A DNA stretch of 37,352 nucleotides, from assembly GCA_937934595.1 (NCBI GenBank), contig CALGZA010000057.1:1-37352 (forward strand), read 5' to 3'. A model generated the notes under the pieces. The model was not told the DNA's origin, ran no database searches, and saw only the letters and a list, made by a program, of their open reading frames with translations. How positions within the stretch are numbered: the stretch's first letter is position 1; each line of letters begins with the position of its first letter. Positions 12,178 through 30,206 of this stretch are shown here, one piece after another. Source of the stretch: an uncultured Verrucomicrobiales bacterium. GTDB taxonomy: Bacteria > Verrucomicrobiota > Verrucomicrobiia > Verrucomicrobiales > Akkermansiaceae. The translations under genes were made by a program, and so were the position numbers.

Positions 12178-12528
12178 ATGGCAGAGAAAGAACCAGAACA
12201 ACTAAAATATAATATCCTCGGTGAAGACAACGCATCACCACAAGATAAAATCGCCAAATACACTGGTGACGTAGACTGGAACTACCTCAAACCTCACTTC
12301 AAGTCAGGTGCCATGATCTATGTAGACCCTGAGCTTCCTCTCAAAGAAGTAGCTCAGGCCTTCACTGATGACAACAAAGCCCAAGTCCAAGCATGGCTCA
12401 AATCAGCAGACCTCGTCAAACCATCACCACTTCACCAAGACTGGTGGGAACATGACCAGACAAGATTCACCGCAGTCGTCATCACCCCCTTCGTCCTCGC
12501 TCAGCCTCTCAAAAAAGAAACCCCCTAG
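12178..12528 (+). CDS. DUF2288-like small protein
   Basis: From the ATG at 12178 the product is 116 residues. The core pattern VDWNYLKPHFKSGAMIYVDP, then LKEVAQAF, VQAWLKSADL and FTAVVITPFVLAQPL resembles the DUF2288 family, which has no established function. The frame stays open upstream into the preceding gene to 12082. That extension would overlap the dehydrogenase by 80 bases and does not look like the family, so the downstream ATG is chosen. The stop codon overlaps the stop of the convergent anti-sigma gene through a shared CTAG. Confidence 0.75.
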   Translation: MAEKEPEQLKYNILGEDNASPQDKIAKYTGDVDWNYLKPHFKSGAMIYVDPELPLKEVAQAFTDDNKAQVQAWLKSADLVKPSPLHQDWWEHDQTRFTAVVITPFVLAQPLKKETP

Positions 12529-13454
12529 AATAACTCAGCTAGTTGCTTAGTATCAGACTTACTAAGAAGTAAATACGCCTTCGTATCATCCCTCCAGCCC
12601 ATCATATTAAACTGAGTAACAGGACAGCTCTTACAGTGCTTCAACCCAACCTGCGTTATATCGCTCAGCCTCTTCGCATCCTTCACACTCCCCACATCCA
12701 GAACCATCAGATAAAAATCCCCAGCACCCTTCTTCTTAAAATAAATCATAGACCCCTGGATCCCATTATCAAGTAACAACTTACATCCCCCCTCCACCCC
12801 ACAAGATATAAGCCCCTCAGGCACAGTATCTGCCACAGGCATGCCCTCCCCCGCAAGCCACGTATTAACGCCAGACAAACTATCACTAGAAACATCTATT
12901 TCATAAGACGCAGATAGAAACTCACCAGAACCCATCTGAAACTCCGCTAGATCCACCTGCTCATCATCACCACCACCCATACCACCTGAAAAAAAGAACG
13001 TAAACCCAAGAAGCAACAGCGCTGCCACAGCCACATAGTGCAACCACGGCATTGAAAAAGGAACCAACTTGCCAGAATCCTTCTCATCATCAGATAGTTC
13101 TCTAGACGCACGCTCTACCTCCATCACAGATAAAATCTGCTCCCGTAAACCATCAGGCGGAGAAACATCTGCCATCGCACCCATAAACAAATAATCTAAA
13201 TCCGTATTCACCTCCTGCACACCTCCATCATACTTCATCACAGATAATATCTCATCCCTCAACCCCTCAGGAATACTCACAGCACTCAATGCCTCTACAA
13301 AAAAAGCATCATGCGCTCGCTCCTCAGCTAACCAGAGACCTAACTCACGGTCTTCAGCAGCCATATGCAACGCCTCAGAAAAATCAGGATTATCCGCGTC
13401 AGCCCCATCTGCCCTGAAACTCTGTAATATAAATTTAGCATGTCCTTTATCCAT
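12525..13454 (-). CDS. Membrane anti-sigma factor paired with the upstream ECF sigma gene
   Basis: The 309-residue product has a cytoplasmic region (1-137), one membrane span at about 138-157 and an extracytoplasmic domain. The cytoplasmic part contains a duplicated motif, PEGLRDEILSVM (62-73) and PDGLREQILSVM (100-111). The C-terminal part has the pattern seen in transmembrane anti-sigma factors: WLAGEGMPV, a turn to LLLDNGIQG, then the GWRDDTKAYLLLS ending. It carries four cysteines (218, 224, 274, 277), the last two as CKSC, which could form disulfides or bind metal. The ATG at 13454 overlaps the sigma gene's stop by eight bases and has AAAGGGG eight bases upstream. An in-frame GTG at 13472 is less likely. 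The pairing implies that this protein restrains the sigma factor until an envelope signal arrives. Confidence 0.78.
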   Translation of the reverse strand: MDKGHAKFILQSFRADGADADNPDFSEALHMAAEDRELGLWLAEERAHDAFFVEALSAVSIPEGLRDEILSVMKYDGGVQEVNTDLDYLFMGAMADVSPPDGLREQILSVMEVERASRELSDDEKDSGKLVPFSMPWLHYVAVAALLLLGFTFFFSGGMGGGDDEQVDLAEFQMGSGEFLSASYEIDVSSDSLSGVNTWLAGEGMPVADTVPEGLISCGVEGGCKLLLDNGIQGSMIYFKKKGAGDFYLMVLDVGSVKDAKRLSDITQVGLKHCKSCPVTQFNMMGWRDDTKAYLLLSKSDTKQLAELF

Positions 13455-13992
13455 TTTTCTGTCCCCTTTCACTCGAATCTTCTAATGATACAACTTTATG
13501 ACTCTCCTCAAGCTTCTCTTTCATCTTCTTCTTTAATAACTCCTTACCCCTAGAAATCCGTGACATCACAGTACCCATAGGTATATCCAAAACCGCTGCT
13601 ATCTCCTTATAACTATGCTGCTGTAAAAAAAACAAAGCCAACGGAGCCCTAAATGTCTCATCCAGACTATTCAGCACAGCAACCGCACGCTTAGCATCCA
13701 CCACCCTCCCAGAATCCTCCTCTCGTGACTCCAAATGATACTCAGCATCTTCCAAATCCATCTCAGGAAACTTACTTAACCTGCGTGCCCCAGCCAAAAA
13801 CTCACGATACAATGTCGTAAACAACCAAGTCTTAGCCTTACTCCTATCCTTTAACTGCTCACCCTTCTGAGCCCATATGCAAAAAGTCTGCTGCACCAAA
13901 TCAGCCGCCTTATCAGGGTTCTTAGCCAAACTATAACCAAACCGATACAACGGCTGGTAATGCGCATCCACTAATTCTTGAAATTCACTCAT
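13447..13992 (-). CDS. ECF sigma factor (locus 1)
   Basis: The 181-residue protein has the sigma70 region 2 pattern (LYRFGYSLAKNPDKAADLVQ, then TFCIWAQ). Its region 4 helix-turn-helix includes APLALFFLQQHSYKEIAAVL and IPMGTVMSRISRGKELL. It lacks regions 1 and 3, as expected for the ECF group. It would direct RNA polymerase to a small regulon, under control of the membrane anti-sigma encoded immediately downstream with an 8-base overlap. The ATG at 13992 is preferred because the family usually starts with a sequence like MSEFQELVDAHY. An in-frame ATG at 14001 adds three residues, and a GAGG motif lies between them. Its target promoters are not known. Confidence 0.92.
   Translation of the reverse strand: MSEFQELVDAHYQPLYRFGYSLAKNPDKAADLVQQTFCIWAQKGEQLKDRSKAKTWLFTTLYREFLAGARRLSKFPEMDLEDAEYHLESREEDSGRVVDAKRAVAVLNSLDETFRAPLALFFLQQHSYKEIAAVLDIPMGTVMSRISRGKELLKKKMKEKLEESHKVVSLEDSSERGQKNG
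13463..13469 (-). promoter_or_regulatory. Shine-Dalgarno AAAGGGG of the anti-sigma gene
   Basis: The site lies inside the 3' end of the sigma gene, eight bases before the ATG at 13454. It decides between that ATG and the upstream GTG at 13472, and it suggests translational coupling of the sigma/anti-sigma pair. Confidence 0.7.
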
Positions 13993-14046
13993 AATCCTCA
14001 TCTATAATACTAAGAGCCATCCAGAATCATTTTTATTCCATTAATA

Positions 14047-16576: not shown

Positions 16577-17752
16577 CTAGTTCTTATTAACTGATAACCT
16601 AAGAAAAACCCCACTATCCTGAAAAAATGAAGCCGTACCAACACGCTTACCATCGCTAGCCACATCCGAGTGACTTACTCCCACAGAACTCCAAGTCGTA
16701 AGATCAGAGCTCTTCTCAACTATATATGAAACACCAGGCGTCAACGCGTAGTAACTCAGACGCGCCTTTAAATTAGAACTATCCAGACTAAACTCAGTAA
16801 GAATCTGACCCAAGTTAGACTTAGGATCCAGTTGTAACGCATAAGCCATCAGCAATGAGTGACCATCACCATTTACATCCTGACTCATATCAACATCAGG
16901 ATCCAAGTTATGGCCAATCAACCAGTCCCTAGCAAAAGGATTAACACCAGGTTTTAACATCACACACGGGTAGTTCTGCCAAGTCGGTGTCGTAAACCCC
17001 GTCTTCCCCTCCATAAAATAAATTGCAAAAGTAGACGCAAACGAAGTATGAGAACCCTGTAACTCAGGTAAAACCGCAGGAGCATTAGACTCAAATAAAA
17101 TCGATCTCAACTCATAACAATTATAAAATAACTTATCACTATCAGGATGTATCCGAGTAGCCACCCTCACATTCTGCAAATTCTCACAATCCTGAAAAAC
17201 TCCAAACTCAAACTTCGTATCCCCACCCAAAATAACCACATCCGTTAACCCATCACTCTTCCAAAAAGCACGCCTTGAAACTCGCGTCATTCCCGCAGGT
17301 AAAGTAATCTTGCGTAACTTACAGTCCTCAAAAGCACGCTCACCTATCACCTTTAAACTAGCAGGAAATACTACTGACTTAAGACTATAACTAATAAAAA
17401 ATGCCAACTCCCCTATCTCCTCCAGAGAATTACCAAAGTCAATGGAACTTACATTATTACACTGGTAAAATGCCTCATTACCTATCTTCAGTAATGTATT
17501 GGGTAATGTTATCTTCGTCAGCGCTGAATTAGCTATCACAGCAGCCACACCTATCTCAGTCACAGGCTTACCCTCCAGCTGCGCAGGCACCACCAAATGA
17601 CCATCAAACTGAGCCGGCGTCGTAAATCGAGTTATCTTAACGTTATCACCAACTACCTCATAGGTAAATGGCCCAGACTGAGCACCATGACTCAGAGTAA
17701 CAATGAGCAGGGAGAAAAATACTGATAAACCTGTTTTAAATACACATATCAT
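16577..17752 (-). CDS. Secreted BspA-like leucine-rich-repeat protein (paralog A)
   Basis: From the ATG at 17752 the product is 391 residues with a signal peptide at 1-23 (ending SHGAQ). Tandem LRR_5/BspA-type repeats follow at about 60-225, with units such as LKIGNEAFYQCNNV and LKVIGERAFEDCKL. A C-terminal module begins near residue 271. It contains a calcium-loop-like DVNGDG (292-297, dockerin/EF-hand style) and ends in GVSYIVEKSSDLTTW and FLRLSV. BspA-type repeats are usually surface adhesion or protein-binding scaffolds. It is colinear with the upstream paralog over its whole length. Its coding DNA is strongly skewed, with very little G on the + strand. Longer in-frame starts exist upstream, but only this one gives a clean signal peptide. 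Confidence 0.8.
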   Translation of the reverse strand: MICVFKTGLSVFFSLLIVTLSHGAQSGPFTYEVVGDNVKITRFTTPAQFDGHLVVPAQLEGKPVTEIGVAAVIANSALTKITLPNTLLKIGNEAFYQCNNVSSIDFGNSLEEIGELAFFISYSLKSVVFPASLKVIGERAFEDCKLRKITLPAGMTRVSRRAFWKSDGLTDVVILGGDTKFEFGVFQDCENLQNVRVATRIHPDSDKLFYNCYELRSILFESNAPAVLPELQGSHTSFASTFAIYFMEGKTGFTTPTWQNYPCVMLKPGVNPFARDWLIGHNLDPDVDMSQDVNGDGHSLLMAYALQLDPKSNLGQILTEFSLDSSNLKARLSYYALTPGVSYIVEKSSDLTTWSSVGVSHSDVASDGKRVGTASFFQDSGVFLRLSVNKN

Positions 17753-17852
17753 GCTCACTACTAAACAATTACAAACCATCAATTCAAGTAAAAAATAAGC
17801 CCCCCGCACGCAAAACCGCACATACATACAGATAAAAAATAACTCACCTAAT

Positions 17853-19019
17853 CTAATGTCTTCGCACAGACAACCTCAGAAACTTTTGTTCATCTCGCCA
17901 CGTAGTCACACTCGCAGTCCTTCGCCCAGAAGCATCAGTAGGTGAATACTTCCATGCAGATTTCCACGTCTTTAAATCATCACTCCACTCTACTAAATAT
18001 GATACACCAGGAGCCTTAGAATAAAAGGATAGCTTCATCGCAAAGTTTGCTAAATCTAACTGAACAGTAGGCATGCTCTGCTTAAAATTTGAATTCGGAT
18101 CCACATTCAGTGCATAAGCTAGCAACAATGATTGGCCATCACCATTATGATCCTTACTTAAATCCATATCAGGATCTAAATTATGTCTAATCAGCCACTC
18201 ACGGGCATGAGGATTAGCCCCATTCCCAAGCATAGCCATTGGATAGTTTTGCCAAGTAGGCGTTGTAAAGCCAGTCTTACCTTCCTTAAAATACATCGAA
18301 AAACCCTCCGCAAATGACTCGCTTAGAGGATTGAGCGGTGGCAAGGTAGCTGGCGCATCTGACTCAAAAGTGATTGAGCGAAGTGCATCGCAACCGTGAA
18401 ACAAATATTCACTTTCCGGATGCAGCCCTGCCGCTATCGTAACGTTTTGCAAGTTTGCACAATCTTGAAAAACACCAAACTCAAATTTAGTATTTTCTCC
18501 CAAGATATAGACATCCGTTAAATGATCACTACTCAAAAATGCTCTTTTCCCAACATTGATCAACCCAGACGGTAAAGTCAAAGTGATGAGCTTACAATTA
18601 TCAAAAGCACGTTCGCCAATAGTCTTGAGACTGTTCGGTAGAACAATAGATTTCAGACTAGAACTAACAAAAAACGCCAAATCTCCAATAGACTCAACTG
18701 AAGTTCCTAAATCAAAAGATGTAACATTATTACATTGATAAAACGCACTATCACCAATCTTTAGAAGAGTATCTGGCATAGTTACCGTCTTTAAATCAAA
18801 ATTAGCTGAAAAAGCACTATTCCCTATCTCTGTTACTGGCTTGCTATCTATCTGAGAGGGAATAACAAGCTGACCATTGAAATCAACAGGTGTCGTATAA
18901 TCCGTAATCCTTACCGATTGCCCAATGACCTCATAGGTATAGGAACCAAATTGAGCACCATAACCTAGGCATGAAGCAAATAATGAAAACAATATAATTT
19001 GAGATAATATTAAACGCAC
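17853..19019 (-). CDS. Secreted BspA-like leucine-rich-repeat protein (paralog B)
   Basis: This 388-residue protein is a full-length paralog of the next gene downstream. It has a signal peptide (1-22, ending GYGAQ), LRR_5 repeats (units such as LKIGDSAFYQCNNV and LKTIGERAFDNCKL), shared blocks KFEFGVFQDC and EGKTGFTTPTWQNYP, a DHNGDG calcium-like loop and a GVSYLVEWSDDLKTW ending. The GTG start at 19019 is chosen because AAGG lies eight bases before it and it gives a standard signal peptide. An upstream GTG at 19040 adds seven residues. Unlike paralog A, its base composition is only mildly skewed. The two genes are 100 bases apart and probably arose by duplication. Confidence 0.8.
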   Translation of the reverse strand: MRLILSQIILFSLFASCLGYGAQFGSYTYEVIGQSVRITDYTTPVDFNGQLVIPSQIDSKPVTEIGNSAFSANFDLKTVTMPDTLLKIGDSAFYQCNNVTSFDLGTSVESIGDLAFFVSSSLKSIVLPNSLKTIGERAFDNCKLITLTLPSGLINVGKRAFLSSDHLTDVYILGENTKFEFGVFQDCANLQNVTIAAGLHPESEYLFHGCDALRSITFESDAPATLPPLNPLSESFAEGFSMYFKEGKTGFTTPTWQNYPMAMLGNGANPHAREWLIRHNLDPDMDLSKDHNGDGQSLLLAYALNVDPNSNFKQSMPTVQLDLANFAMKLSFYSKAPGVSYLVEWSDDLKTWKSAWKYSPTDASGRRTASVTTWRDEQKFLRLSVRRH

Positions 19020-19027
19020 AATAATGA

Positions 19028-19031
19028 CCTT
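19028..19031 (-). promoter_or_regulatory. Shine-Dalgarno AAGG of LRR paralog B
   Basis: It lies eight bases upstream of the GTG at 19019 and favours that codon over the GTG at 19040, which has no comparable motif. Confidence 0.5.
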
Positions 19032-19085
19032 ACAACACACCTACACTATGGATTCAAGCACAAATTCAGCAAATAATGAAAACCA

Positions 19086-19117
19086 ATATCCATACCTTTA
19101 TAAAAAGGTATGGATAT
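19086..19117 (-). terminator. 14-bp perfect hairpin after the giant-protein gene
   Basis: Arms 19086-19099 and 19104-19117 pair perfectly around a four-base loop. In the - direction the hairpin lies 28 bases after the stop of the 2303-residue gene and is followed by TGGTTTT. That is a short T-run, so termination may be moderate. It probably ends the sigma/VWA/giant-protein transcript before the LRR genes. It could also protect an mRNA end. Confidence 0.7.
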
Positions 19118-19144: not shown

Positions 19145-22100
19145 CTACTTTCTAGACAGCCAAATCCCTATAAAGCTAGTAATGAAGAGTATCAAAATCA
19201 GACCAAAATGTGAGCCTCCTGCCCCAACATCCATCGCCTCATTCACAGAAGATGAGTTTAACTCTATCTCTATACCCAGTCCATGATCACCAGCCAAATG
19301 CAGATCCTTACGGAAATGAAGAACATTACGAGTATCCAAGATCTCTAGCTCCACAGCCTGACCAGCAGAACTAGTTACCAATTGCGGCTTCACTAGCTTC
19401 CGTGCTATCCGCTTCATCGCTAATATCTCCTCAGCACTATTTCCCTGCATGTAATCTCCTAGCTGATTCGGATCAAAGTTCTTACTCCCTAAGAAAAAAG
19501 GATTACGCGTAACAGCCTCCTCTAATGCATCATTCTTACCCTGAGTATTTCCCATCGCCTTGTTATCCATGTAAGATTTCTGACTCCGTGTATTAAGACC
19601 CATAATCGCCTGACTCGTCATATTGCGCTCTAACTTCACTCGCGCATCCTCATTACTAGCTGCATCAACAGCCTGATTACGGAACACCCGGTTCAGTGCA
19701 GCATTAGCTTTATCCAGCTGACCTCTGTTACTAAAGTCCATCGCTCTATCTAACTCACGCTGCCCCTCCTCCCTCAGCTCCATATACCTTGCCTTCTTTA
19801 TACTCTTGAAAGCATCTGTATAACTTCCCATATGAGGATTTCTGATCGTATCTATATAATCAAAACCACCCCTATACTTACCCATAGAATAACCATCAGG
19901 AAGCATCACATACCAATCAATATTCTCTAAAGGAATACTCATCTTAGGCCCTAACAAGGTGACCACCTTACCTACTGCCGCACCAGCTTTCACCTGATAT
20001 GTAATTTGAACCTTAGCGGGCTCTTTATCTTTATTGGACTCGCTAACATGGAACCAATATGCATCTCCCTCCTTAACCACCTCAGCACTCTTATCATTTA
20101 CTATTACATTGAATAGCTCAGCTCCATCCGGAAGGGATATCCTCAAACTAGACTTCTCAGCTACGTTGACATCAAGACTCAACCTCGAAAGCGCACCACC
20201 ATCAGCATTAAACATAGTCCGTAAGTTACCACGCGCCACACGCAGCTTCAGAGTGCCTGCCATAGAATGCCTCTTCACACTTAATGCCATCTTTTTCTTC
20301 GCATCCAATACGCGGTAACACAAACTCGGATCACTTCGGTCAGATACATCATACAGCTTGCTAGGCACATTAGCCCAGTCAAACCCTCTCCACTCTCGTA
20401 ACTCAGCTCCCTGAACCTCAAGGCGACTCGGAACACGCACCGCAACATAATGAACAGCCTGCTTGGAATCTAGTAAATGAACAGGTGATATCAACTCTTC
20501 ATCACCACCACGTAATGTCAGATCCTGATAACCTATCTGAACTGGCACAGACCCTATCATTCCCCTCCGTAAATTAATCTGCCATTCATCAGCCTTAACA
20601 TGCACTATCTCCTTAACCGCCTTACCACTCGCTCTCAACGTGCTAGCCTGCTCTTTCCCTACTCCAGGTATCCGAATGTTAAATTTCTTAACCACCGCAT
20701 GCTCCACCTGATAATGTATATTCATCCAGTGCTTAGTTAACCCTTCTCGCACACTCACCTGCTGAAGTATCTCAGCGGTAATCCATGGATCTAACTTCTG
20801 AACAGCCAATGAAATCTTCCAGTCCCTTTGTAATAATCGGAACCCCAATGAACCCACACTCTTAACCGCTGAATCCTTATTTTCTAATTCTGAAGCATGC
20901 TTACGATCCGCCACGCGTAACCTAATCCCATGATCTGGTATCAAACTAAGCACACCACCTTGACGATCAACTCCCTCAAGTGACCAGCGCGGAACATCCC
21001 ATACACTCGCCGCAGTCGCCACCTCAGGTGCATCTCCCTGCATCGTTATAATAAATCGCTGATTCCCCATCGTCTTACCATTCAAATACATAGTAGCCAA
21101 TGACTTCCCACCTACCTCTGATAAACTCCAGTCTCTCAAAGCAGCTCCATTGATTGATTCAACAGACAGACCACTAGGAACCATGAACTTCAGCTCAAAC
21201 ACACCAGCACGAGTTATATGAACAAAAGCCTCTACCTGGTGCGATATCCTCTCATCACTCAGCCGTATAGTCTGCTGACTCTTAACTCGTATCTCAGGTG
21301 CCACTGCCGCCACTCTCAAATTAATCTTACCGCGCTTCTGTCCATAACGATACGCCTTGTGAAGAAGAAACTTAGATTGTAAGTCGCGCGCAGACTTAAC
21401 TAAACTCTTATCAAAATCAGCTATATTAATCTCTAACAGATCTACTACCTTCGCATCATCTGGCTGAGAATCCAACCCAAATCCATACCCTATCTCACCC
21501 ACAGTACTCGCAGCACCACGAACTAAAATAGATTCTAACAGCAAGTCCTGCGGATAAGCCTTCACACCACGCTGAGTCATAATCATTAAATTAAAATCTT
21601 TCGTCTGAGGCCTCTGCATCATCACAGTCAACGTCTTACTCGCAGCATCAAATCGCCAATTATCAATCTCAGAACCCATCACATTCCCTACCATTAAACC
21701 ATCAGGAATCGTAATAGCCACCTCCTTAAGCTCTCCCGCTAAAGGCTTAATACTAACCTTATGACGCCCATCTAAAACTCCAGGAGCAGGAACATAGACG
21801 TCCGCCACCTCAGCTAAAAACCGTAGCTTCTCCACACTCCTATCCCGCGGCATCGGCCTCAGAATCACTCGCGCTTGCACAAGCCCCATCAGAGTTAGAT
21901 GGAAAGAACTTTGTTCATCAGCCCCATCAAGCCTCTCAGACCGAACAGACTGAGCAGAACTAACCTTCCAGTTCGCTTCATCCACCACCACAGACAGTGT
22001 CTTCATCGCAGACTTCCCACTAAGGACTCGGCACATTAACTCAGCCTCACCCTTTAACATAACCTGATAACGAACCACAGCACGTATCTCGCCAGAATCC

Positions 22101-25100
22101 TCAGCTACCAGTCTCCACGCTAGTGAACCATCCACTTCGCTCTTCATCTTCACCACGCGGAATCCATCACCCTCAGCACCTAAAAGAACACCAGGCGCTC
22201 TAAGTATTTCCAGAGAGTCACCCTCTTCTGCATTCCACGTAATAGTCTGTGTTGAGATCAACTTCTTATCCCTCACATCCCATGCCTCCACTATAGAATC
22301 CGCTATCTGCTCATCAGCGCGTGACTCAGATACTAATGCCATCATACTAAACAGCACCACACTCACAGCAGTAGCTCCACCAGACTTAAAGTTCCAACCA
22401 TTTATCAACTTAGGAAGCCCCTTCACCAGCAGCAAACCTGCTAACAATGCCAGAGCAAAATAAAAGTAAGCAGCCCCTCCAACATGCATCAGACAACTCA
22501 CTAAAATAGCAAAAACAGCAAGCCCCCTCAGCAATGTAGTCGGCAGAAGATTCCGAACCGCATCACTATCTAACATACTAACCACCAATAATCCAACTCC
22601 TACTAGCAACAATGAAATGCCAATCCCAGAGAATCGGCTAGGCCCAGATGCTTCATTAGATAACTCTAAAGATACCGCTTCTTGATGACTCACCACAGGA
22701 GCCACCACATCAAATTCCTTGAAACTAGTCACAGTTGTATCCACAGATTCTACTCCTAATAATATACTCACAGCTATAGCAGCTAATACCCAAACATTAC
22801 CAAACAATATCAACCAACGATCAGTAATCTTATCCCTTAACAAGAACACTCCCCCTAACAAAAGACCGAGAACCCCTATAAACATATAATAATAAGACTT
22901 TATCTGACTAAAGCCATTCTCACTAACGTGCATCTGTAATGGCTTAACATTACCCCCAATAGCACTCATATGATTATCCCCAGTCACCTTCCATTCCGCT
23001 ATCGTAAGTGGCGCAGATAAAACCGGCGGACCCACAGTAACCTTAGCAGGATCATCAGATATCCCACCATAACGAATCTCCAGAGTCCTATAACGGTTCG
23101 CATCCTTCGTCGATGGCAAAGGAAGTATTACCTGGTCACCATCAACTCGTGCATTGATCAACTCACCATCAACCATCGAAGTCCACAGCTTATTACCCTC
23201 AGGTAGCTTTATGCGGAGAGCTTTACTACCCCTCGTATTCACTAAAAATTTAGCATTCGTCACAACCTCACCTTCACTTGTAATTCGAGTGTCCAATGAC
23301 GCTGCTCCCACCGCCTGATCAAGAGTCTTCACCAGCTCCATCGTCTCAACATGCAGTGACACCCCATAAGGCCTTGCAGAATATTGCCACGCCGCTACCG
23401 ATGGCGTAGAGGTCAGCACCTGATGCTCAGACGGCATCTCAAGAGGACTAATGCGTAACAAACTCCCGCTCTTCTTTACATCGCTCACCTTTACCTGATG
23501 ATCACTCACCAAATGAATAAATCCAGACTCAGAATGAACTCCTATCGGAGTCACAGAGCCTATACTTATCGTCCCCCCTCGTGGACTCATCGGCTCTTCA
23601 TAAGTAACTAACAACTTAGAAGTACCCATCACAGGCTGATTCAAGGTCACAGTCAACACATCACCATCCTGATCCCATGTCCTAACATACTGACCCTCCA
23701 CAGACACATTCTCTACTCCAGCTGGCAAACTCAGCTTCCACTCATTCGTAGGCGCACCTATTACAAAATAATAAGCAAGAATCTTAGCCTCAAGAACTCC
23801 CTCCTTAAGATGATACAAATGCAACAGATCAGACTGTATAGACTGCCCCATCGCACTTATCTGAACAGTCGCAGACCACTCAGCAGACCGGGTCCTATAC
23901 GCATGCTGTAACCTGTCACCACCACCTGGAAAATATGCCAATGGCCGCTCATCAAGCTGCTTCACAGACGCCTTAACTGGAATCATCTTCCAGCCACTTG
24001 CCGACAGAACTCCTATATCCCCACGGATCGTCTTCACACCAGGAAATGCCATAACAGGCAGTGACCACTCACCACCAGCCGCTGCCAGATTCTTCTCCAA
24101 TCTAACTAGTATCAACTGACGCCCTATCACCTCACCATTAAACAAAATCTTAACAGCTCGTCTCCCACCCACTACCGTCGTACTAACCACATGATCAGCC
24201 ATGTTCGCACTCACCACCCTAGATACAGAATAGTCCGCTGGTATCATAAAACTCCACTCACGTAAACCCGCCTCAGCAATATCTATCTCTATATTAGCAT
24301 CTATCACTCGGTCAGTCTCACTCATCTCATAAGTTGTTATATGACTCAAAGACACCTCAGATGTAATCTGATCCGCAGATAACTCGATCTTACGCTCAGC
24401 AGATGGAAATCGATACACAAACACCTGACTACCCACTCCTTTAATTTGTGCCTGCTTCACAGGAAACTTATCAGGTGAAAGCTGCATCAATCCACGTGTA
24501 AGACTTGTCTCCACCCTCACTGCACCTCTATTAGATACTCGGATAAATCCAGAATGCCGCATACTCCCACGCGGAGTCAAAGTCAGTGGCTCAACCTTCG
24601 CCGGAAACTTACCCAAAGCATGCTGTGACGCCACACGTAACTCACTAACCCCAGATATAGCCGCCTTCATCACACATTCTAACAGCTTCTTACCCCCCAC
24701 CTCGCTCACCTTCCAGCTCGCCACCTGAGAACCTAACACAGATACTATTTCCCCAGACCCAGAAAGATCAAAGACCACCTTACTCATCTTCCCCTGCAGC
24801 ACCTTAAACTGAACTTTCGAGGAAGCATGCATCAAACCAGAACTAACAGAAACCTCAGTCACCCCCTCAGTAGTATAAAATAAAGCGCCATCTCCAGTCT
24901 TTGCCCTCGTCTTCCAGCTCAGATCACACACACCAGTTGCCGGCAGCACACCATGCCATGAGGACCCATCAGAATTAAAATCTAAAACCGTTGTCTCATC
25001 CCTACGAAACTCTATACTCTCTTTCAAATTATCAATAGCTAGCGGCACCACAGCCCCATTAGGAACCGTAAAATTCAACTCACTCCAACCCTTGCCACTC

Positions 25101-26056
25101 GTAACAGGAACAGCAAAATCTAGCTGAACTGAATACACACCTTCATTACTACATACTATCCCATAAACCATTCCAGACTTCCCATGACTAACATGCATCT
25201 TCCCAGCATCAATATCAGGAAAACTACTCAACGCTACCTTCCCTCGCAAAAGTGTAAAAGGCACTTCGCTAGCCTCTCTCACATGAAGCTCGCCACTAAG
25301 CGTAACCCTTGCAGACTTACCACTATCATCAACCACTGCCTGAACCTCTATATCGCGTAAATCAATAGGAGCATAATCCCCCGCACTCTTCAGAATTCTC
25401 AACTCCATATCAGAGGAACCATGAGATATAAACACCATTGAATCAGCTACTTCAGACTTCGCAACAGTACATCCCCTCGCCTCCAGAACATCCACCTGCA
25501 CACCATCCTTCAATATAGTAATTGACTCAGAAAAACCAGCCCTGTCACCTTCCACATTTGAAAAAGTCATCAGATGCACATGAGGCTTCGCTATAGACTT
25601 ATCCAGCTTCAGCTCAGCATGCACATCTACATCCAGATCCTCAATATCCGCATCATTAGCGCGCACATCCAGATAATGAACTCCCTCATGCTCCCGCACA
25701 GACCACTCCTTCAGCCCCTCACCTATCACTGACTTAATATCAGACTTATGCCGTATCGCCAGACTCATCACCTCATCAGCTCCCTGAAGCTTCTTAAAAC
25801 TCAAAGAAATCTTCTGCCTAACAGAAGTAGAATTCACCCTTACCAGCTGCTCAGACTTAGTGGAGAAAAACAACGGCGGCTTCGGTGGAACTCCATGCGC
25901 CTCCACTATCAATGCTCCTCCAGACCCAGCATGCATTTCTGCCTTCAAACCTATATCATCAGCTTCCTGCGCCAGCGCCACTGCACTCAACAGCCCGGCA
26001 GCGGAACTGGCGACAAGATATTTAACGACACACTTAATTTTTCGTCTCAACTTCAT
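19145..26056 (-). CDS. Giant (2303 aa) membrane repeat protein, two-half architecture, unrecognised family
   Basis: An N-terminal signal peptide (about 1-30, ending VALAQ) leads into a beta-rich extracytoplasmic region to about 1050. A cluster of about six hydrophobic spans follows (about 1055-1074, 1080-1100, 1143-1161, 1177-1192, 1194-1212, 1228-1243), the last ending in SESRA like a second signal peptide. A second beta-rich half runs from 1248 to about 2080, then a helical TPR-like stretch (2092-2156) and a C-terminal Gly-Gly/hydrophobic/basic tail (2279-2303). A motif of the form P-x-G-x(n)-V-x-G-x-W recurs in both halves, for example LPAGVENVSVEG, IPDGLMVGNVMG, VPSGLSVESING. AGGA lies seven bases before the ATG. 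It follows the VWA gene by 44 bases and probably shares its transcript. I know no named family; an envelope structural or sensory role is an inference. Confidence 0.85.
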   Translation of the reverse strand: MKLRRKIKCVVKYLVASSAAGLLSAVALAQEADDIGLKAEMHAGSGGALIVEAHGVPPKPPLFFSTKSEQLVRVNSTSVRQKISLSFKKLQGADEVMSLAIRHKSDIKSVIGEGLKEWSVREHEGVHYLDVRANDADIEDLDVDVHAELKLDKSIAKPHVHLMTFSNVEGDRAGFSESITILKDGVQVDVLEARGCTVAKSEVADSMVFISHGSSDMELRILKSAGDYAPIDLRDIEVQAVVDDSGKSARVTLSGELHVREASEVPFTLLRGKVALSSFPDIDAGKMHVSHGKSGMVYGIVCSNEGVYSVQLDFAVPVTSGKGWSELNFTVPNGAVVPLAIDNLKESIEFRRDETTVLDFNSDGSSWHGVLPATGVCDLSWKTRAKTGDGALFYTTEGVTEVSVSSGLMHASSKVQFKVLQGKMSKVVFDLSGSGEIVSVLGSQVASWKVSEVGGKKLLECVMKAAISGVSELRVASQHALGKFPAKVEPLTLTPRGSMRHSGFIRVSNRGAVRVETSLTRGLMQLSPDKFPVKQAQIKGVGSQVFVYRFPSAERKIELSADQITSEVSLSHITTYEMSETDRVIDANIEIDIAEAGLREWSFMIPADYSVSRVVSANMADHVVSTTVVGGRRAVKILFNGEVIGRQLILVRLEKNLAAAGGEWSLPVMAFPGVKTIRGDIGVLSASGWKMIPVKASVKQLDERPLAYFPGGGDRLQHAYRTRSAEWSATVQISAMGQSIQSDLLHLYHLKEGVLEAKILAYYFVIGAPTNEWKLSLPAGVENVSVEGQYVRTWDQDGDVLTVTLNQPVMGTSKLLVTYEEPMSPRGGTISIGSVTPIGVHSESGFIHLVSDHQVKVSDVKKSGSLLRISPLEMPSEHQVLTSTPSVAAWQYSARPYGVSLHVETMELVKTLDQAVGAASLDTRITSEGEVVTNAKFLVNTRGSKALRIKLPEGNKLWTSMVDGELINARVDGDQVILPLPSTKDANRYRTLEIRYGGISDDPAKVTVGPPVLSAPLTIAEWKVTGDNHMSAIGGNVKPLQMHVSENGFSQIKSYYYMFIGVLGLLLGGVFLLRDKITDRWLILFGNVWVLAAIAVSILLGVESVDTTVTSFKEFDVVAPVVSHQEAVSLELSNEASGPSRFSGIGISLLLVGVGLLVVSMLDSDAVRNLLPTTLLRGLAVFAILVSCLMHVGGAAYFYFALALLAGLLLVKGLPKLINGWNFKSGGATAVSVVLFSMMALVSESRADEQIADSIVEAWDVRDKKLISTQTITWNAEEGDSLEILRAPGVLLGAEGDGFRVVKMKSEVDGSLAWRLVAEDSGEIRAVVRYQVMLKGEAELMCRVLSGKSAMKTLSVVVDEANWKVSSAQSVRSERLDGADEQSSFHLTLMGLVQARVILRPMPRDRSVEKLRFLAEVADVYVPAPGVLDGRHKVSIKPLAGELKEVAITIPDGLMVGNVMGSEIDNWRFDAASKTLTVMMQRPQTKDFNLMIMTQRGVKAYPQDLLLESILVRGAASTVGEIGYGFGLDSQPDDAKVVDLLEINIADFDKSLVKSARDLQSKFLLHKAYRYGQKRGKINLRVAAVAPEIRVKSQQTIRLSDERISHQVEAFVHITRAGVFELKFMVPSGLSVESINGAALRDWSLSEVGGKSLATMYLNGKTMGNQRFIITMQGDAPEVATAASVWDVPRWSLEGVDRQGGVLSLIPDHGIRLRVADRKHASELENKDSAVKSVGSLGFRLLQRDWKISLAVQKLDPWITAEILQQVSVREGLTKHWMNIHYQVEHAVVKKFNIRIPGVGKEQASTLRASGKAVKEIVHVKADEWQINLRRGMIGSVPVQIGYQDLTLRGGDEELISPVHLLDSKQAVHYVAVRVPSRLEVQGAELREWRGFDWANVPSKLYDVSDRSDPSLCYRVLDAKKKMALSVKRHSMAGTLKLRVARGNLRTMFNADGGALSRLSLDVNVAEKSSLRISLPDGAELFNVIVNDKSAEVVKEGDAYWFHVSESNKDKEPAKVQITYQVKAGAAVGKVVTLLGPKMSIPLENIDWYVMLPDGYSMGKYRGGFDYIDTIRNPHMGSYTDAFKSIKKARYMELREEGQRELDRAMDFSNRGQLDKANAALNRVFRNQAVDAASNEDARVKLERNMTSQAIMGLNTRSQKSYMDNKAMGNTQGKNDALEEAVTRNPFFLGSKNFDPNQLGDYMQGNSAEEILAMKRIARKLVKPQLVTSSAGQAVELEILDTRNVLHFRKDLHLAGDHGLGIEIELNSSSVNEAMDVGAGGSHFGLILILFITSFIGIWLSRK

Positions 26057-26082
26057 AATGTTATCCTAGTTTTATATTTTTA

Positions 26083-26103
26083 TTGTAAATTACTTGTAAA
26101 TTA
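26083..26103. repeat. 10-bp direct repeat duplicating the VWA stop region
   Basis: TTGTAAATTA occurs at 26083-26092 and 26094-26103, one base apart. The second copy contains the stop codon (TAA read on the - strand) of the VWA gene. It is probably a small local duplication. Confidence 0.6.
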
Positions 26104-29100
26104 TTGATCCACTTTCTCACACATCCTAATCAGATCTTTAACCTCATCATCCGCATGATAATGGTTTCTGAGAGCACCATACACAGCACCCAACTCACCA
26201 AGATTGATCCCCGCATCACCACCTAGCTTTAGCCTCTCACCTAACATCGCTGCTACCGCAGCTAACTGCATAGACGGATCAGCTGACTTTAAGCTCTTAA
26301 CTCCTCCATCATAAGGTATCACCCAGCTACGCTCCACCATCTTACCACTTGCCATATCCCGGAACCGAACAAACACAGTCCCCACATCACCCTCACCATC
26401 CGGCTGAGCCTCCACCTGATACACCGCATTACCAGCCTCCTCAGCAGCCATCTCAGCAGCATCCACCTTATCATTCCTAAAGTCCTGCTTCTTTAACCGA
26501 TGCTTCTCAAAACCTACCAACCTATAACTACCCACACGCTTAGGATTAAACACAACCTGAACTTTCACATTCTTAGCAGCTGGCCTCAATGCACCAGCTA
26601 ACTTCTGCGCAAACCCAGCATCAGCATCCTCAGGCTTATTTATAAAATAATACCTGCCATCACCTTTACGTGTCAAAGCCTCTAACATATCATCATCTAA
26701 CCCATCACCTCCCACACCACAGGCATCAAAAGCAATTCCCTTCTGCCGCATTTGCACTATGCTCTTAGACAACGCCTCAGGATCCGCATTCCCTAAATTA
26801 GCAGCACCGTCAGTAATCAAAACAATCCGGCTCATCGCACCCTCCTCCACCGTCTGCTTTGCAGCTGCATACGCCTGCTGAATAGCCAAACTCAAGTTCG
26901 TCCCACCCTCAGAGGGTATCCCCTTCACCAGCTCAACCAACTTATGAGCCTCATTACCCTTCACCTTCTGCGCCACCAACCTAACACCACGTGCAAAACT
27001 CATCAACGTAACCTCATCCTCAGGCCCTAACTGGCTCGCCAAAGCCTCCACAGCTTTAAGAACCGTCTTAGCCCTGTCTTCTCGCTCCATTGAACCAGAA
27101 TTATCAAGTAAAACTGTCAACCTCAACGGCTGTGACCTCCCCATAGCACCCGTCTTCATTCCTATCCTCATCAAATTACGCTGCTGATAAAAAGGATGCG
27201 CACACTGCTCCACCACACAGTTCACCTTCTTGCCACTCGCACCAGGATCACCATAATCAAAAGCATTCACAAATTCCTCCACCCTCACCTTCTCTGCCTC
27301 AGGCTCCCCACCCTTCTCCAAAATCAACGTCTTCGCCAACTGATAACTCACATCACTCACATTCAATGAAAAAGTAGAATGCGTCTGCTCAGCTGCAGAA
27401 ATTTCTTTAAGTAGATCAACCCGCTGAGTCGATTTTGCCTCTAGTGATTTTATCAGTTCAGCTACATTATCAAGCTCATTCATTGTATTCCGCACTGTCA
27501 AAGTTCCACGCTCTTTATCATAGTCCACCTTAGATCCATCAGGAAATGTCAATCCAAGCCGTTCCATTAACTCATTAACACTGGCTTCTTTTCTTATATC
27601 CCCTTCTCCAAACGGATCTCCACTATCATCCAGTGCCACATTCCCTCTTAGCATATCAACAAACCCTTCAGGAGCTTTGAAAGTTTTGGCATACATATCG
27701 TTCGTATCAACATCAGTAGCTGCAACTATTCTAATACCATCCTCACCCACTTTATAACGTAGATTAGACAGTTTACATATCTCCCTCAAAGCATCTTCTA
27801 TTGGTATATTACGTAATCGCAAAGCCCCCAACTTTTGACCAGCAATATTTTCATCCAATTGAGCAATTTTCAATGACTGATCTTGGCCATCAGAATCAAG
27901 CTCTCTTGTTCTCAACTTCAAAAACTGAATCGCATCTCCAACAGTAGCATTCTCATCTAATTTAACCTCAGGAATCTCAACAGCAGACAATACTCCTTTA
28001 GTCAGTTTCACCTTTTTCTCATTCACTTTGTCCTTACCTTCAACACTCTGCTCCCACTCTTGATCTACCTTCATTAGCATCGAAGCTCTAGTTTGATCAT
28101 ACGCCGACCTATAATAACCATTCTTAGCCGCACTAACCTTCTCCATCCCAAGTCTAGCAGCCTTATTATAGGGATCTATTCTCAGTATTTCCTTATATTC
28201 AAGCATTGCCTGATCGAACTGAGCCAGATCAGAATAGCCAGTTGCCCGGTAAAGCGACTTTCTAATTTTATTTACATTTTTAACATGCTCATTCGTCATT
28301 GTTGCACTAGACCTTGTCCGATCATCAAGATACTCTAAATGTTTCTTAGCTAAAACATTATCTGGATCTCCATCAAGCGCCTCATCAATTATTTCAAGAG
28401 TCTTATTCACACCCTCAGGCATCGCAAGCTTTTCAACGCTAACTTCGCCACCGCGTTGCTCTTTCCCTTTCTTGGATCTAGGTTTACTCTTTCTATTGGG
28501 TAAAACCATACGAGATTCATCATCAAAAGCATCTACAATAGCAGATTCATCATCACCAAAAGGATCTGCATCATACGCATAATTCATTCTCCCTTTCAGC
28601 GCCGCTAAACCATTCTTAGAAACCTCAGAATCTTTCGCCTCAGCTGATTTAATCTCACCCCCAGCTTCATCTCTCCGTCCCCAACCATCTCCAAAATCAT
28701 CCCCGTCCCCAAAGTCTAAACTAGGCTCACTCAAAATAGCTTCCGGCATTGGCACAGCAATAGCACTAGGCGAGCTAGCCGCAATAACTTTTGCCATACT
28801 ACCAGATGGGCTGCTAGGCCTCATCTCTACTTTACTACTCATTTCAGGCTTAACTATTACCTCCCCTTCTTCCTCTTCTGTTTGTGGTAAAATCCCTTCA
28901 CCATCTCCACCACCCCAAACCACTATATTTTCTGAAAAGCCCCTAGATTCATAAGATTTTTTTTCAGAACGCAGTGAATAGCTAACCATCTCTAAAGAAT
29001 CTCTAAAAACAGGAACATTCCTTTTAAAAAACATCATCATGAAAGCAGCCGCAGAAAGCAAGAAACACGCAGCCACACTAAAAACATTCCGCCACTGCAA

Positions 29101-29448
29101 CCCACTTGTAGAAATATTAACCACCTCAGAAGACCCCTCAGCCACCTCTGCAAAACTCCCTAGCAAAGCCTCCCTCCTATCAGCCGAGAGTGACCACTCC
29201 TCACCACCATCATCATCTGAATCTTCTCCACCCGCAAGAGACACCTCCCTAATCAGCCCCTGCACCTCTTCCATCCTGTCACGGAATAAACGTAATTCCG
29301 GACTCTTCTCCAGCTCTTCCTCCATCTCAGCTACCTCAAACGCACTAAGCTCTCCCATCTGCATCGCTATCAAGCGCGCCTCCAGTTCTGGGTCATTCCA
29401 GACTCCTATTGAGTCCTTAGCTGTTTCTGTTGAATGCTTATCTTTCAT
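26101..29448 (-). CDS. Membrane VWA protein (YfbK-type) with anti-sigma-like head and secretin-N-like domains
   Basis: The product has 1115 residues. Residues 18-70 (DPELEARLIAMQMGELSAFE onward) resemble the cytoplasmic head of anti-sigma factors. One span lies at 122-141. A low-complexity acidic linker is followed by a TPR-like unit (about 404-437). Two regions resemble secretin/TonB N-domains: 497-580 with LRNIPIEDALREICKLSNLRY, and 622-670. A YfbK-type VWA domain (about 692-960) has an intact MIDAS: Asp782/Ser784/Ser786 in DNSGS, Thr850 in GGTN and Asp880 in TDGAAN. A DUF3520-like tail completes it. A strong AAGGAA precedes the ATG. The ECF sigma gene is upstream and the giant repeat protein downstream. 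I infer that it ties envelope assembly or ligand binding to release of the sigma factor. Confidence 0.88.
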   Translation of the reverse strand: MKDKHSTETAKDSIGVWNDPELEARLIAMQMGELSAFEVAEMEEELEKSPELRLFRDRMEEVQGLIREVSLAGGEDSDDDGGEEWSLSADRREALLGSFAEVAEGSSEVVNISTSGLQWRNVFSVAACFLLSAAAFMMMFFKRNVPVFRDSLEMVSYSLRSEKKSYESRGFSENIVVWGGGDGEGILPQTEEEEGEVIVKPEMSSKVEMRPSSPSGSMAKVIAASSPSAIAVPMPEAILSEPSLDFGDGDDFGDGWGRRDEAGGEIKSAEAKDSEVSKNGLAALKGRMNYAYDADPFGDDESAIVDAFDDESRMVLPNRKSKPRSKKGKEQRGGEVSVEKLAMPEGVNKTLEIIDEALDGDPDNVLAKKHLEYLDDRTRSSATMTNEHVKNVNKIRKSLYRATGYSDLAQFDQAMLEYKEILRIDPYNKAARLGMEKVSAAKNGYYRSAYDQTRASMLMKVDQEWEQSVEGKDKVNEKKVKLTKGVLSAVEIPEVKLDENATVGDAIQFLKLRTRELDSDGQDQSLKIAQLDENIAGQKLGALRLRNIPIEDALREICKLSNLRYKVGEDGIRIVAATDVDTNDMYAKTFKAPEGFVDMLRGNVALDDSGDPFGEGDIRKEASVNELMERLGLTFPDGSKVDYDKERGTLTVRNTMNELDNVAELIKSLEAKSTQRVDLLKEISAAEQTHSTFSLNVSDVSYQLAKTLILEKGGEPEAEKVRVEEFVNAFDYGDPGASGKKVNCVVEQCAHPFYQQRNLMRIGMKTGAMGRSQPLRLTVLLDNSGSMEREDRAKTVLKAVEALASQLGPEDEVTLMSFARGVRLVAQKVKGNEAHKLVELVKGIPSEGGTNLSLAIQQAYAAAKQTVEEGAMSRIVLITDGAANLGNADPEALSKSIVQMRQKGIAFDACGVGGDGLDDDMLEALTRKGDGRYYFINKPEDADAGFAQKLAGALRPAAKNVKVQVVFNPKRVGSYRLVGFEKHRLKKQDFRNDKVDAAEMAAEEAGNAVYQVEAQPDGEGDVGTVFVRFRDMASGKMVERSWVIPYDGGVKSLKSADPSMQLAAVAAMLGERLKLGGDAGINLGELGAVYGALRNHYHADDEVKDLIRMCEKVDQ

Positions 29449-29540
29449 GATTGCTTCCTTTCTTCTATATGTAACTTAAAAAAATCTGAAACCCGCTCTA
29501 CCCCTCATCCCAGGGCATCACGGATCCAAGTACTAAATAA

Positions 29541-30068
29541 CTAAATCCTATCTATCCCTTTTCTCCTTAACCCCTCACCCAATGTCTTCAAAATATGATG
29601 CAGCCTATACCCCACATTACCTATCCCCATCTCTAACTGCTCACCTATCGCGCTATAACTTCTATCCTCCTCAAACTTCAACCTCAGCAACTCCCTATCC
29701 TTTACACCTAAATCATCCATCAAGAGCTGCATCATATGCACCGCCTCTAAACGCTTAATCTGGTCATCAGGCCCACTATCCACAGCCTCAGAACCAGTAT
29801 CATCAGTCAGCGTTTCACGCTTAAACTTGCGTATATAATTTAGCGCTATATTCCTCACAGCCTTATAAAGCCATGGTTTCGGCTTACTCACCACTCCCCA
29901 CTGCTCATGAAGCTTCATAAATGCATCCTGAACAATCTCCTCAGCCACCTCCCTCCGCTTCACATAACCATAAGCAAACTTTAACAAAGGAACCTCCTCA
30001 GCAGCAAAAACATCTTCTATCGATAAGGTTACAACCTTCACGGTATCGGATGTCTGAGTATCTTTCAT
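29541..30068 (-). CDS. ECF sigma factor (locus 2, VWA operon)
   Basis: The ATG at 30068 gives 175 residues. Region 2 is visible as LLKFAYGYVKRREVAEEIVQ, then DAFMKLHEQWG and KPWLYKAVRNIALNYIR. Region 4 reads LLRLKFEEDRSYSAIGEQL with the recognition helix near MGIGNVGYRLHHILKTL. A GTG at 30080 would add four residues; neither start has a good Shine-Dalgarno. The VWA gene begins 92 bases downstream with an anti-sigma-like head, so the likely regulator is that protein rather than a dedicated small anti-sigma. It may drive its own operon; no promoter motif could be assigned. Confidence 0.9.
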   Translation of the reverse strand: MKDTQTSDTVKVVTLSIEDVFAAEEVPLLKFAYGYVKRREVAEEIVQDAFMKLHEQWGVVSKPKPWLYKAVRNIALNYIRKFKRETLTDDTGSEAVDSGPDDQIKRLEAVHMMQLLMDDLGVKDRELLRLKFEEDRSYSAIGEQLEMGIGNVGYRLHHILKTLGEGLRRKGIDRI

Positions 30069-30206
30069 AGCTAGTTTCACGTTATTTCTAATGCGGATAA
30101 AATTCTTTATTTAAGGCAATCAACAACCATTTCCATGCAGACTTTACTTATAAGACACATCAAAAAAGATTTCCTTAGAAAAAAAATCAAAATAAAATAA
30201 AATCCC

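What the first reader, a model, noticed from the sequence alone, without database searches (positions are those of the whole stretch)
19145..30068. Sigma factor, VWA protein and giant repeat protein as a candidate envelope signalling apparatus
Seen: three co-directional genes with gaps of 92 and 44 bases, ending at a 14-bp hairpin. Known: ECF sigma factors are usually held by membrane anti-sigma proteins, and YfbK-type VWA proteins bind partners through the MIDAS site. Inferred: the VWA protein's cytoplasmic head holds the sigma factor. Its periplasmic VWA and secretin-N-like parts would contact the giant protein, so that assembly or loss of the giant structure is reported to transcription. 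I do not know this three-gene combination as a described system.
Basis: partly seen in the sequence, partly recalled or inferred. Interest (0 to 1): 0.75.

Follow-up and report, generated by a model that had tools for sequence, protein, structure and literature searches.

The report
Conserved sigma, membrane VWA, giant-protein operon
Three neighbouring genes form an operon kept across two bacterial phyla: a gene switch (sigma factor), a membrane protein whose inner end looks like that switch's lock, and a giant envelope protein, so the operon probably reports on the state of the cell envelope, although what it senses is not known.

Summary
In named loci from Verrucomicrobiota and Planctomycetota (the best 79 of 204 matches), a VWA gene lies upstream of the giant in 66 of 66 with at least 1.5 kb held, and sigma in 59 of 59 with at least 5 kb; in 50 of those 59 both gaps are at most 300 bases. 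Among 58 genomes, the VWA orthologue occurs only where a strong giant match occurs. The head of the VWA protein is a class I anti-sigma domain: 21 of 46 relatives keep the zinc motif, and the zinc-less group with the window matches them by profile. I also found a promoter-like element upstream of sigma, with exact spacing in 72 of 99 distinct upstream regions, suggesting self-control. In other genomes of the family the element also precedes genes for exported proteins, notably alpha-2-macroglobulins (8 of 33 non-operon sites); in the window's genome only this operon carries it. The giant has two beta-sandwich arrays around a membrane block. Contact between VWA protein and giant is only indirectly supported. 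New variant of the ECF/anti-sigma kind.

The parts
30152..30180 (-). ECF-type promoter-like element TTCTAAGGAA-N12-GTGTCTT upstream of the sigma gene
   Evidence: PWM from 59 distinct sites: 36.0 bits here, next best site in the window 8.1; the window's site is one of the 59. Exact spacing conserved in 72 of 99 distinct upstream regions.
29541..30080 (-). ECF sigma factor (179 aa from GTG; ATG start at 30068 also possible)
   Evidence: Pfam Sigma70_r2 3.4e-10 and Sigma70_r4_2 2e-06
26101..29448 (-). Membrane VWA protein (1115 aa), predicted anti-sigma factor and sensor
29224..29391 (-). Anti-sigma-like cytoplasmic head (aa ~20-75), zinc ligands lost
   Evidence: hhalign of zinc-less group (26 with window) against zinc group (21): Prob 95.1, P 3.2e-8; 29 of 30 column shuffles gave no hit, one gave E 0.81
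29020..29088 (-). Single transmembrane helix of the VWA protein (aa 121-143)
   Evidence: hydropathy 2.25
27409..28410 (-). Region like Amuc_1098 family / STN secretin N-domain (aa 347-680)
   Evidence: NCBIfam NF042912 264 bits (cut-off 750); Pfam STN 25.5 bits (cut-off 28.4)
26635..27117 (-). VWA domain (aa 778-938) with MIDAS-type DxSxS (DNSGS at aa 782)
   Evidence: Pfam VWA 7.1e-15; a loose [DN]xS[GAS]S pattern in the last 480 residues of 117 of 117 VWA proteins of at least 400 aa, L125 and L127 left out
26407..26592 (-). YfbK C-terminal domain match (aa 953-1014)
   Evidence: Pfam YfbK_C 5e-23
19145..26056 (-). Giant envelope protein (2303 aa): hydrophobic export signal, ectodomain 1, membrane block, ectodomain 2, C-terminal helix
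22328..22894 (-). Central membrane block of the giant (6 helices by hydropathy, aa 1055-1243)
   Evidence: 4 to 6 central helices in 98 of 113 non-redundant giants (2 to 8 in all), C-terminal helix in 107 of 113
19086..19117 (-). 14-bp hairpin after the giant gene, likely terminator
   Evidence: read from sequence

Best explanation
The operon encodes a self-controlling ECF signalling unit of the cell envelope. (1) The sigma factor is held at the inner membrane by the N-terminal anti-sigma domain of the VWA protein. (2) The rest of the VWA protein (secretin-N-like region, MIDAS-type VWA, YfbK C-domain) lies in the periplasm. (3) The giant is anchored by about 7 helices and displays two beta-sandwich arrays of about 1000 residues, probably on the same side. 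(4) Disturbance of the giant, or of what it binds, is passed to the VWA protein, which then releases sigma, possibly by proteolysis. (5) Sigma switches on its own operon through CTAAGGA-N13-GTGTC and, in other genomes of the family, genes for exported proteins such as alpha-2-macroglobulins, DUF4139 proteins and a small ~143-aa family. Step 1 is supported by homology and gene order, and the self-control part of step 5 by promoter conservation. Step 3 is prediction (only half 2 was modelled). Step 2 is inferred from topology. Step 4 and the direction of the signal are inference.
For: Gene order: sigma in 59 of 59 and VWA in 66 of 66 named loci with enough upstream DNA, both gaps at most 300 bases in 50 of 59. 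Co-occurrence: the VWA orthologue (over 380 bits) is in exactly the 21 of 58 genomes, own included, that have a strong giant match. Anti-sigma head: Hx3Cx2C in 21 of 46 relatives, 21 of 47 members hit Pfam zf-HC2 at E up to 0.1, and the zinc-less group matches by profile. Translational coupling: ATGA-type overlap in 40 of 109 pairs. Promoter: 72 of 99 distinct upstream regions at spacing 22, at most 6 at any other spacing from 14 to 30, at most 8 in 200 shuffles. Specificity: the six sigma/VWA paralogue pairs scanned score only -14.5 to 8.6 bits upstream. Regulon: 48 exact sites in 31 of 117 family genomes against 1 reversed-pattern control. Non-operon sites occur in 21 of 55 giant-bearing and 3 of 62 other genomes, Fisher 7e-6. 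Of 33 such sites, 8 precede alpha-2-macroglobulins (4 by Pfam, 4 by BLAST cluster), 4 DUF4139 and 4 the small family. Structure: a read-through sigma/head model has pLDDT 83.2 and pTM 0.73.
Against: No tool here gave sigma-head contacts; pTM 0.73 is suggestive only, and the model was forced onto one chain. No direct evidence shows that VWA and giant touch. Three loci (L106, L107, L123) keep a giant without sigma or VWA beside it. The alpha-2-macroglobulin link failed a further test: of 40 MG2 genes I chose, scores of 12 bits or more were found upstream in 3 of 20 from giant-bearing and 2 of 19 scored from other genomes (Mann-Whitney over all scores p 0.32). The window genome's own MG2 gene above cut-off has no site (best score -8.9), and in that genome only the operon carries an exact site. 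27 of 99 upstream regions lack the spaced element. With looser patterns hits are near control level. The giant model has pTM 0.51, so its domain arrangement is uncertain.
Confidence: 0.6

Rival explanations
1. Local feedback for building the giant: the VWA protein is an assembly partner of the giant and also its anti-sigma. Sigma serves only its own operon, so that the supply of the giant matches free VWA protein, and no outside stress is sensed.
For: In the window's genome the exact promoter occurs once, at this operon. The giant and the VWA orthologue co-occur in all 21 cases of 58 genomes.
Against: In other genomes of the family the same element precedes recurrent exported-protein genes, and does so mainly where the giant exists.
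Confidence: 0.25
2. Ordinary ECF/anti-sigma pair in which the giant is an effector, not a sensor part: the VWA protein senses another ligand through its MIDAS site, and the giant is the main product made in response.
For: Two-gene sigma/VWA modules without a giant exist in the same genomes: a sigma gene was found beside a VWA paralogue in 6 of the 14 loci fetched for this. ECF sigma operons often include their effector (established knowledge).
Against: The VWA orthologue of this operon was not found without the giant in 58 genomes. In distant loci L125 and L127 copies of the VWA protein's secretin-N region sit inside a giant-like ORF.
Confidence: 0.3
3. Mere neighbourhood: three unrelated genes kept together by slow rearrangement.
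For: The three loci L106, L107 and L123 keep the giant alone.
Against: Order kept across Verrucomicrobiota and Planctomycetota while flanks differ: the rhomboid upstream was recognised only in one relative, seen as L069 and L128. Shared promoter and ATGA overlaps.
Confidence: 0.03

Closest known systems
ECF sigma factors with membrane class I anti-sigma factors (RseA, RsiW, zf-HC2 type)
   Same: ECF sigma gene followed by a gene for a membrane protein with N-terminal anti-sigma domain, one helix and a periplasmic part; promoter-like element upstream of the sigma gene.
   Different: Periplasmic part is a secretin-N-like region plus a YfbK-type VWA; a third gene for a membrane giant is a regular part; the window's anti-sigma head has lost the zinc ligands.
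YfbK family VWA proteins
   Same: vWF_A, VWA and YfbK_C domains.
   Different: Adds an anti-sigma head, a membrane helix and an Amuc_1098/STN-like region. That E. coli YfbK lacks a sigma partner is recalled, not tested.
Amuc_1098 family type IV pilus outer membrane protein (NF042912)
   Same: Residues 347-680 match profile positions 105-466.
   Different: Only this part of the profile; 264 bits against a cut-off of 750; a VWA follows instead of the rest of the profile.
M1 aminopeptidase N-terminal beta domain and OST1/ribophorin I ectodomain
   Same: Fold of parts of giant half 2: aa 1938-2267 match 1z1w at Z 14.0, rmsd 3.0, 149 aligned.
   Different: No peptidase domain seen in half 2; the OST1 match has rmsd about 20 (17.5-20.3) over two domains; sequence identity about 7-14% in the listed rows.

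Membership tests
ECF sigma factor | sigma-70 regions 2 and 4 only, short protein | tested here: met
   Pfam r2 and r4 (r4_2) above cut-off in 179 aa
Class I anti-sigma factor (ASDI) | N-terminal helical anti-sigma domain homologous to zf-HC2 | tested here: met
   Profile link of the zinc-less group to zinc-type relatives, Prob 95.1; 21 of 47 members hit zf-HC2 at E<=0.1; the window protein itself has no Pfam hit in this region
Class I anti-sigma factor (ASDI) | Hx3Cx2C zinc motif (optional: passages of PMC7406223, say about 44% of ASDIs lack it) | tested here: not met
   absent in the window protein, present in 21 of 46 relatives; 7 loci with cut, split or unrelated N-termini were left out
Class I anti-sigma factor (ASDI) | binds and inhibits its sigma factor | tested here: inconclusive
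   read-through AlphaFold model of L091: pLDDT 83.2, pTM 0.73; contacts not available
YfbK family | vWF_A + VWA + YfbK_C | tested here: met
   all above cut-off; YfbK_C only over positions 2-63 of 184
Amuc_1098 pilus outer membrane protein | equivalog score over the curated cut-off | tested here: not met
   264.4 of 750 bits
GlyGly-CTERM / rhombosortase pair | GG before the C-terminal helix of the giant and a conserved neighbouring rhomboid | tested here: not met
   GG in 22 of 113 giants; rhomboid recognised only in L069/L128, while the close relatives L068 and L070 end before that place; rhombosortase score 25.1 of 84
Alpha-2-macroglobulin (for the giant) | MG2/A2M domains | tested here: not met
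   no such Pfam hit at E<=1 in the giant

The most novel reading that the evidence does not exclude
A signalling unit shared by Verrucomicrobiota and Planctomycetota in which a VWA anti-sigma factor reads the state of a membrane giant built of two beta-sandwich arrays and, through a dedicated promoter, turns on alpha-2-macroglobulin-type and other exported proteins: a two-phylum envelope surveillance or innate-defence response.
Probability: 0.35. Interest if true: 0.8.

Novelty: new variant of a known kind. Interest (0 to 1): 0.63.

Why it matters
It gives a likely function class to a family of proteins of about 2100-2500 residues that has no Pfam match. It defines a promoter that can be tested at once in cultured hosts such as Rhodopirellula or Haloferula. 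It also offers a candidate regulator for some bacterial alpha-2-macroglobulins in this group. If the giant is the sensor part, it would add an unusual kind of input to ECF signalling.

Tried and rejected
GlyGly-CTERM sorting by the neighbouring rhomboid, and the rhomboid as part of the system: rejected, not conserved where testable. Zinc or redox sensing by the head in this species: unlikely, ligands lost. The sigma promoter as a general motif of all sigma/VWA pairs: not supported, six paralogue promoters score low. A large regulon in the window's genome: not supported; the pattern CYAAGRW-N13-KKGTC gave 4 hits v 4 controls, and with up to 3 mismatches (56 hits v 36 controls) only the operon has 0 and four sites have 2. 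Alpha-2-macroglobulin as obligate target: not supported. For that test I picked 40 of the MG2 matches, left out three giant-bearing genes already known to carry a site (G023 C42, G032 C18, G035 C177), and one giant-negative gene (L390) could not be scored. Foldseek of giant half 2 gave query TM-scores of at most 0.16 in the 50 listed PDB rows and 0.14 in the 50 listed viral rows (one of them an inter-alpha-trypsin inhibitor family protein at probability 1.00), so no whole-protein homologue is claimed. Giant half 1 was not folded. Paper searches: searches found none; others gave listings, of which I saw passages of PMC3174227, PMC12826043, PMC7406223, PMC8103513, PMC2754498 and PMC3861447 and none describes this operon; 93 and 104 returned mostly unrelated papers. 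The library lacks most subscription papers. Two identifiers that I recalled for the main ECF classification paper were not held.

Full report
Observation. One search shows three minus-strand genes at 19145-30080: a sigma factor, a 1115-aa VWA protein and a 2303-aa giant, with gaps of 92 and 44 bases and a 14-bp hairpin after the giant. Pfam places sigma regions 2 and 4 in the first, and vWF_A, VWA and YfbK_C in the second, with a sub-threshold STN match. The giant has nothing above cut-off. NCBIfam adds a partial match of VWA residues 347-680 to the Amuc_1098 family, 264 of 750 bits.

Conservation. The window lies in a 3.15-Mb draft genome of 123 contigs. G005, of the same genus, has the contig length and locus of Rubritalea profundi, so Rubritalea is the likely genus. 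A strong giant match is present in 21 of 58 genomes, own included, and 8 more have weak matches; two of the 21 (G012, G048) are in pieces at contig ends. The VWA orthologue with more than 380 bits is in exactly those 21. The giant is found, at E up to 0.001, in 79 of 387 genomes drawn from the phylum. A scan of named genomes gave 204 relatives, of which the best 80 were kept as 79 loci, in Verrucomicrobiota and in Planctomycetota such as Rhodopirellula, Stieleria and Neorhodopirellula. In these, VWA lies upstream of the giant in 66 of 66 loci with at least 1.5 kb upstream, and sigma in 59 of 59 with at least 5 kb. The VWA-giant gap is at most 300 bases in 58 of 66, the sigma-VWA gap in 56 of 59, both in 50 of 59. 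In the partly overlapping set L068-L127 the figures are 53 of 58 and 45 of 51. Two of those 53 (L125, L127) are a different, distant arrangement. L106, L107 and L123 have a giant without sigma or VWA nearby.

Anti-sigma head. Of 46 relatives with a readable N-terminus, 21 keep Hx3Cx2C; seven loci were left out (L068, L070, L072, L080, L102 cut or split; L125, L127 unrelated starts). 21 of the 47-member alignment hit Pfam zf-HC2 at E up to 0.1, not the window. Before the membrane helix, the zinc-less group (26 sequences, window included) matches the zinc group (21) with probability 95.1 and P 3.2e-8. Of 30 column shuffles, 29 gave no hit and one gave E 0.81. Passages of PMC7406223 state that zinc and non-zinc anti-sigma domains mix in the same groups. 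Sigma and VWA genes overlap by an ATGA-type stop/start in 40 of 109 pairs, both sets pooled with their shared loci. AlphaFold of a read-through chain from L091 gave mean pLDDT 83.2 and pTM 0.73. I could not inspect contacts, so this is weak support.

Promoter. Upstream of the sigma gene lies TTCTAAGGAA-N12-GTGTCTT (30152-30180). Without preference for spacing, CYAA[GT] and GTC lie at distance 22 in 72 of 99 distinct upstream regions. No other distance from 14 to 30 exceeds 6, and 200 single-base shuffles never exceed 8 at any distance. The best PWM site in the whole window is this one, 36.0 bits against 8.1 for the next; the window sequence was among the sites used to build the PWM. The promoters of six paralogous sigma/VWA pairs without a giant score -14.5 to 8.6. 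I infer self-control of the operon.

Wider regulon. Exact TYCYAAGRAW-N12-GKGTCWT occurs 48 times in 31 of 117 family genomes, with one control hit. By position 15 sites belong to this operon. The other 33 lie in 21 of 55 giant-bearing and 3 of 62 other genomes (Fisher 7e-6). Two of the 55, G440 and G458, have only weak giant fragments. All 33 sites were read in fetched loci. Eight precede genes of one BLAST cluster; four of these were scanned and carry MG2 with A2M or A2M_BRD domains, and four are assigned by cluster. Four precede DUF4139 genes (two by Pfam, two by cluster) and four a ~143-aa exported family. The other 17 fall in no cluster; for two of them (L289, L333) the script picked no gene, and several do not look like promoters. 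Against: of 40 MG2 genes picked without regard to the element, scores of 12 bits or more were found upstream of 3 of 20 in giant-bearing and 2 of 19 scored in other genomes (Mann-Whitney over all scores p 0.32); three giant-bearing genes already known to have a site were left out of that test. So only a subset of these genes is linked. In the window's genome the operon is the only exact site, and its MG2 gene lacks one.

Giant. Two homologous halves flank a central membrane block, and a C-terminal helix follows. Simple hydropathy gives 4 to 6 central helices in 98 of 113 non-redundant giants (2 to 8 in all; 6 in the window) and a C-terminal helix in 107 of 113, so the side on which each half lies is likely but not certain. 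Half 2 (aa 1245-2303) folds with mean pLDDT 90.0 but pTM 0.51 as a chain of beta-sandwich domains, a helical bundle and the final helix: single domains are confident, their arrangement is not. Parts resemble the N-terminal beta domain of M1 aminopeptidases (1z1w, Z 14.0, rmsd 3.0, 149 aligned) and OST1/ribophorin I (Z about 15 but rmsd about 20 over two domains). No enzyme domain was seen in this half; half 1 was not modelled. In distant loci L125 and L127 a giant-like ORF carries copies of the VWA protein's secretin-N region, a fusion hint that these parts work together.

Judgement. The sigma/anti-sigma pairing is well supported and the giant belongs to the system. What is sensed, and whether the VWA protein touches the giant, is open. 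No paper that I saw in the listed searches describes the operon; the library is partial, and most hits were seen as listings only.

Noticed in passing
window 12525-14001 (-): A second ECF sigma gene (13447-14001) is followed by an overlapping 315-aa gene without Pfam match, possibly another sigma/anti-sigma pair.
   Followed up: no
window 16577-19040 (-): Two neighbouring BspA-type leucine-rich repeat genes lie downstream of the giant; not recognised directly beside the giant in the 60 loci.
   Followed up: partly
L207 8151-8687 and 5942-8161: In the window's own genome another ECF sigma / membrane YfbK-type VWA pair exists without a giant; similar pairs in five other loci fetched.
   Followed up: partly
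L131: Rubritalea profundi: VWA and giant reading frames are both split, an apparent decay or sequencing error.
   Followed up: no
L304: A genome without a giant match (G459) has a short stretch like the giant's C-terminus just downstream of an exact promoter site, perhaps a remnant of a lost operon.
   Followed up: no
L297: A 1053-aa protein with partial, below-cut-off matches to VIT-domain families starts 77 nt after a one-mismatch promoter site.
   Followed up: partly
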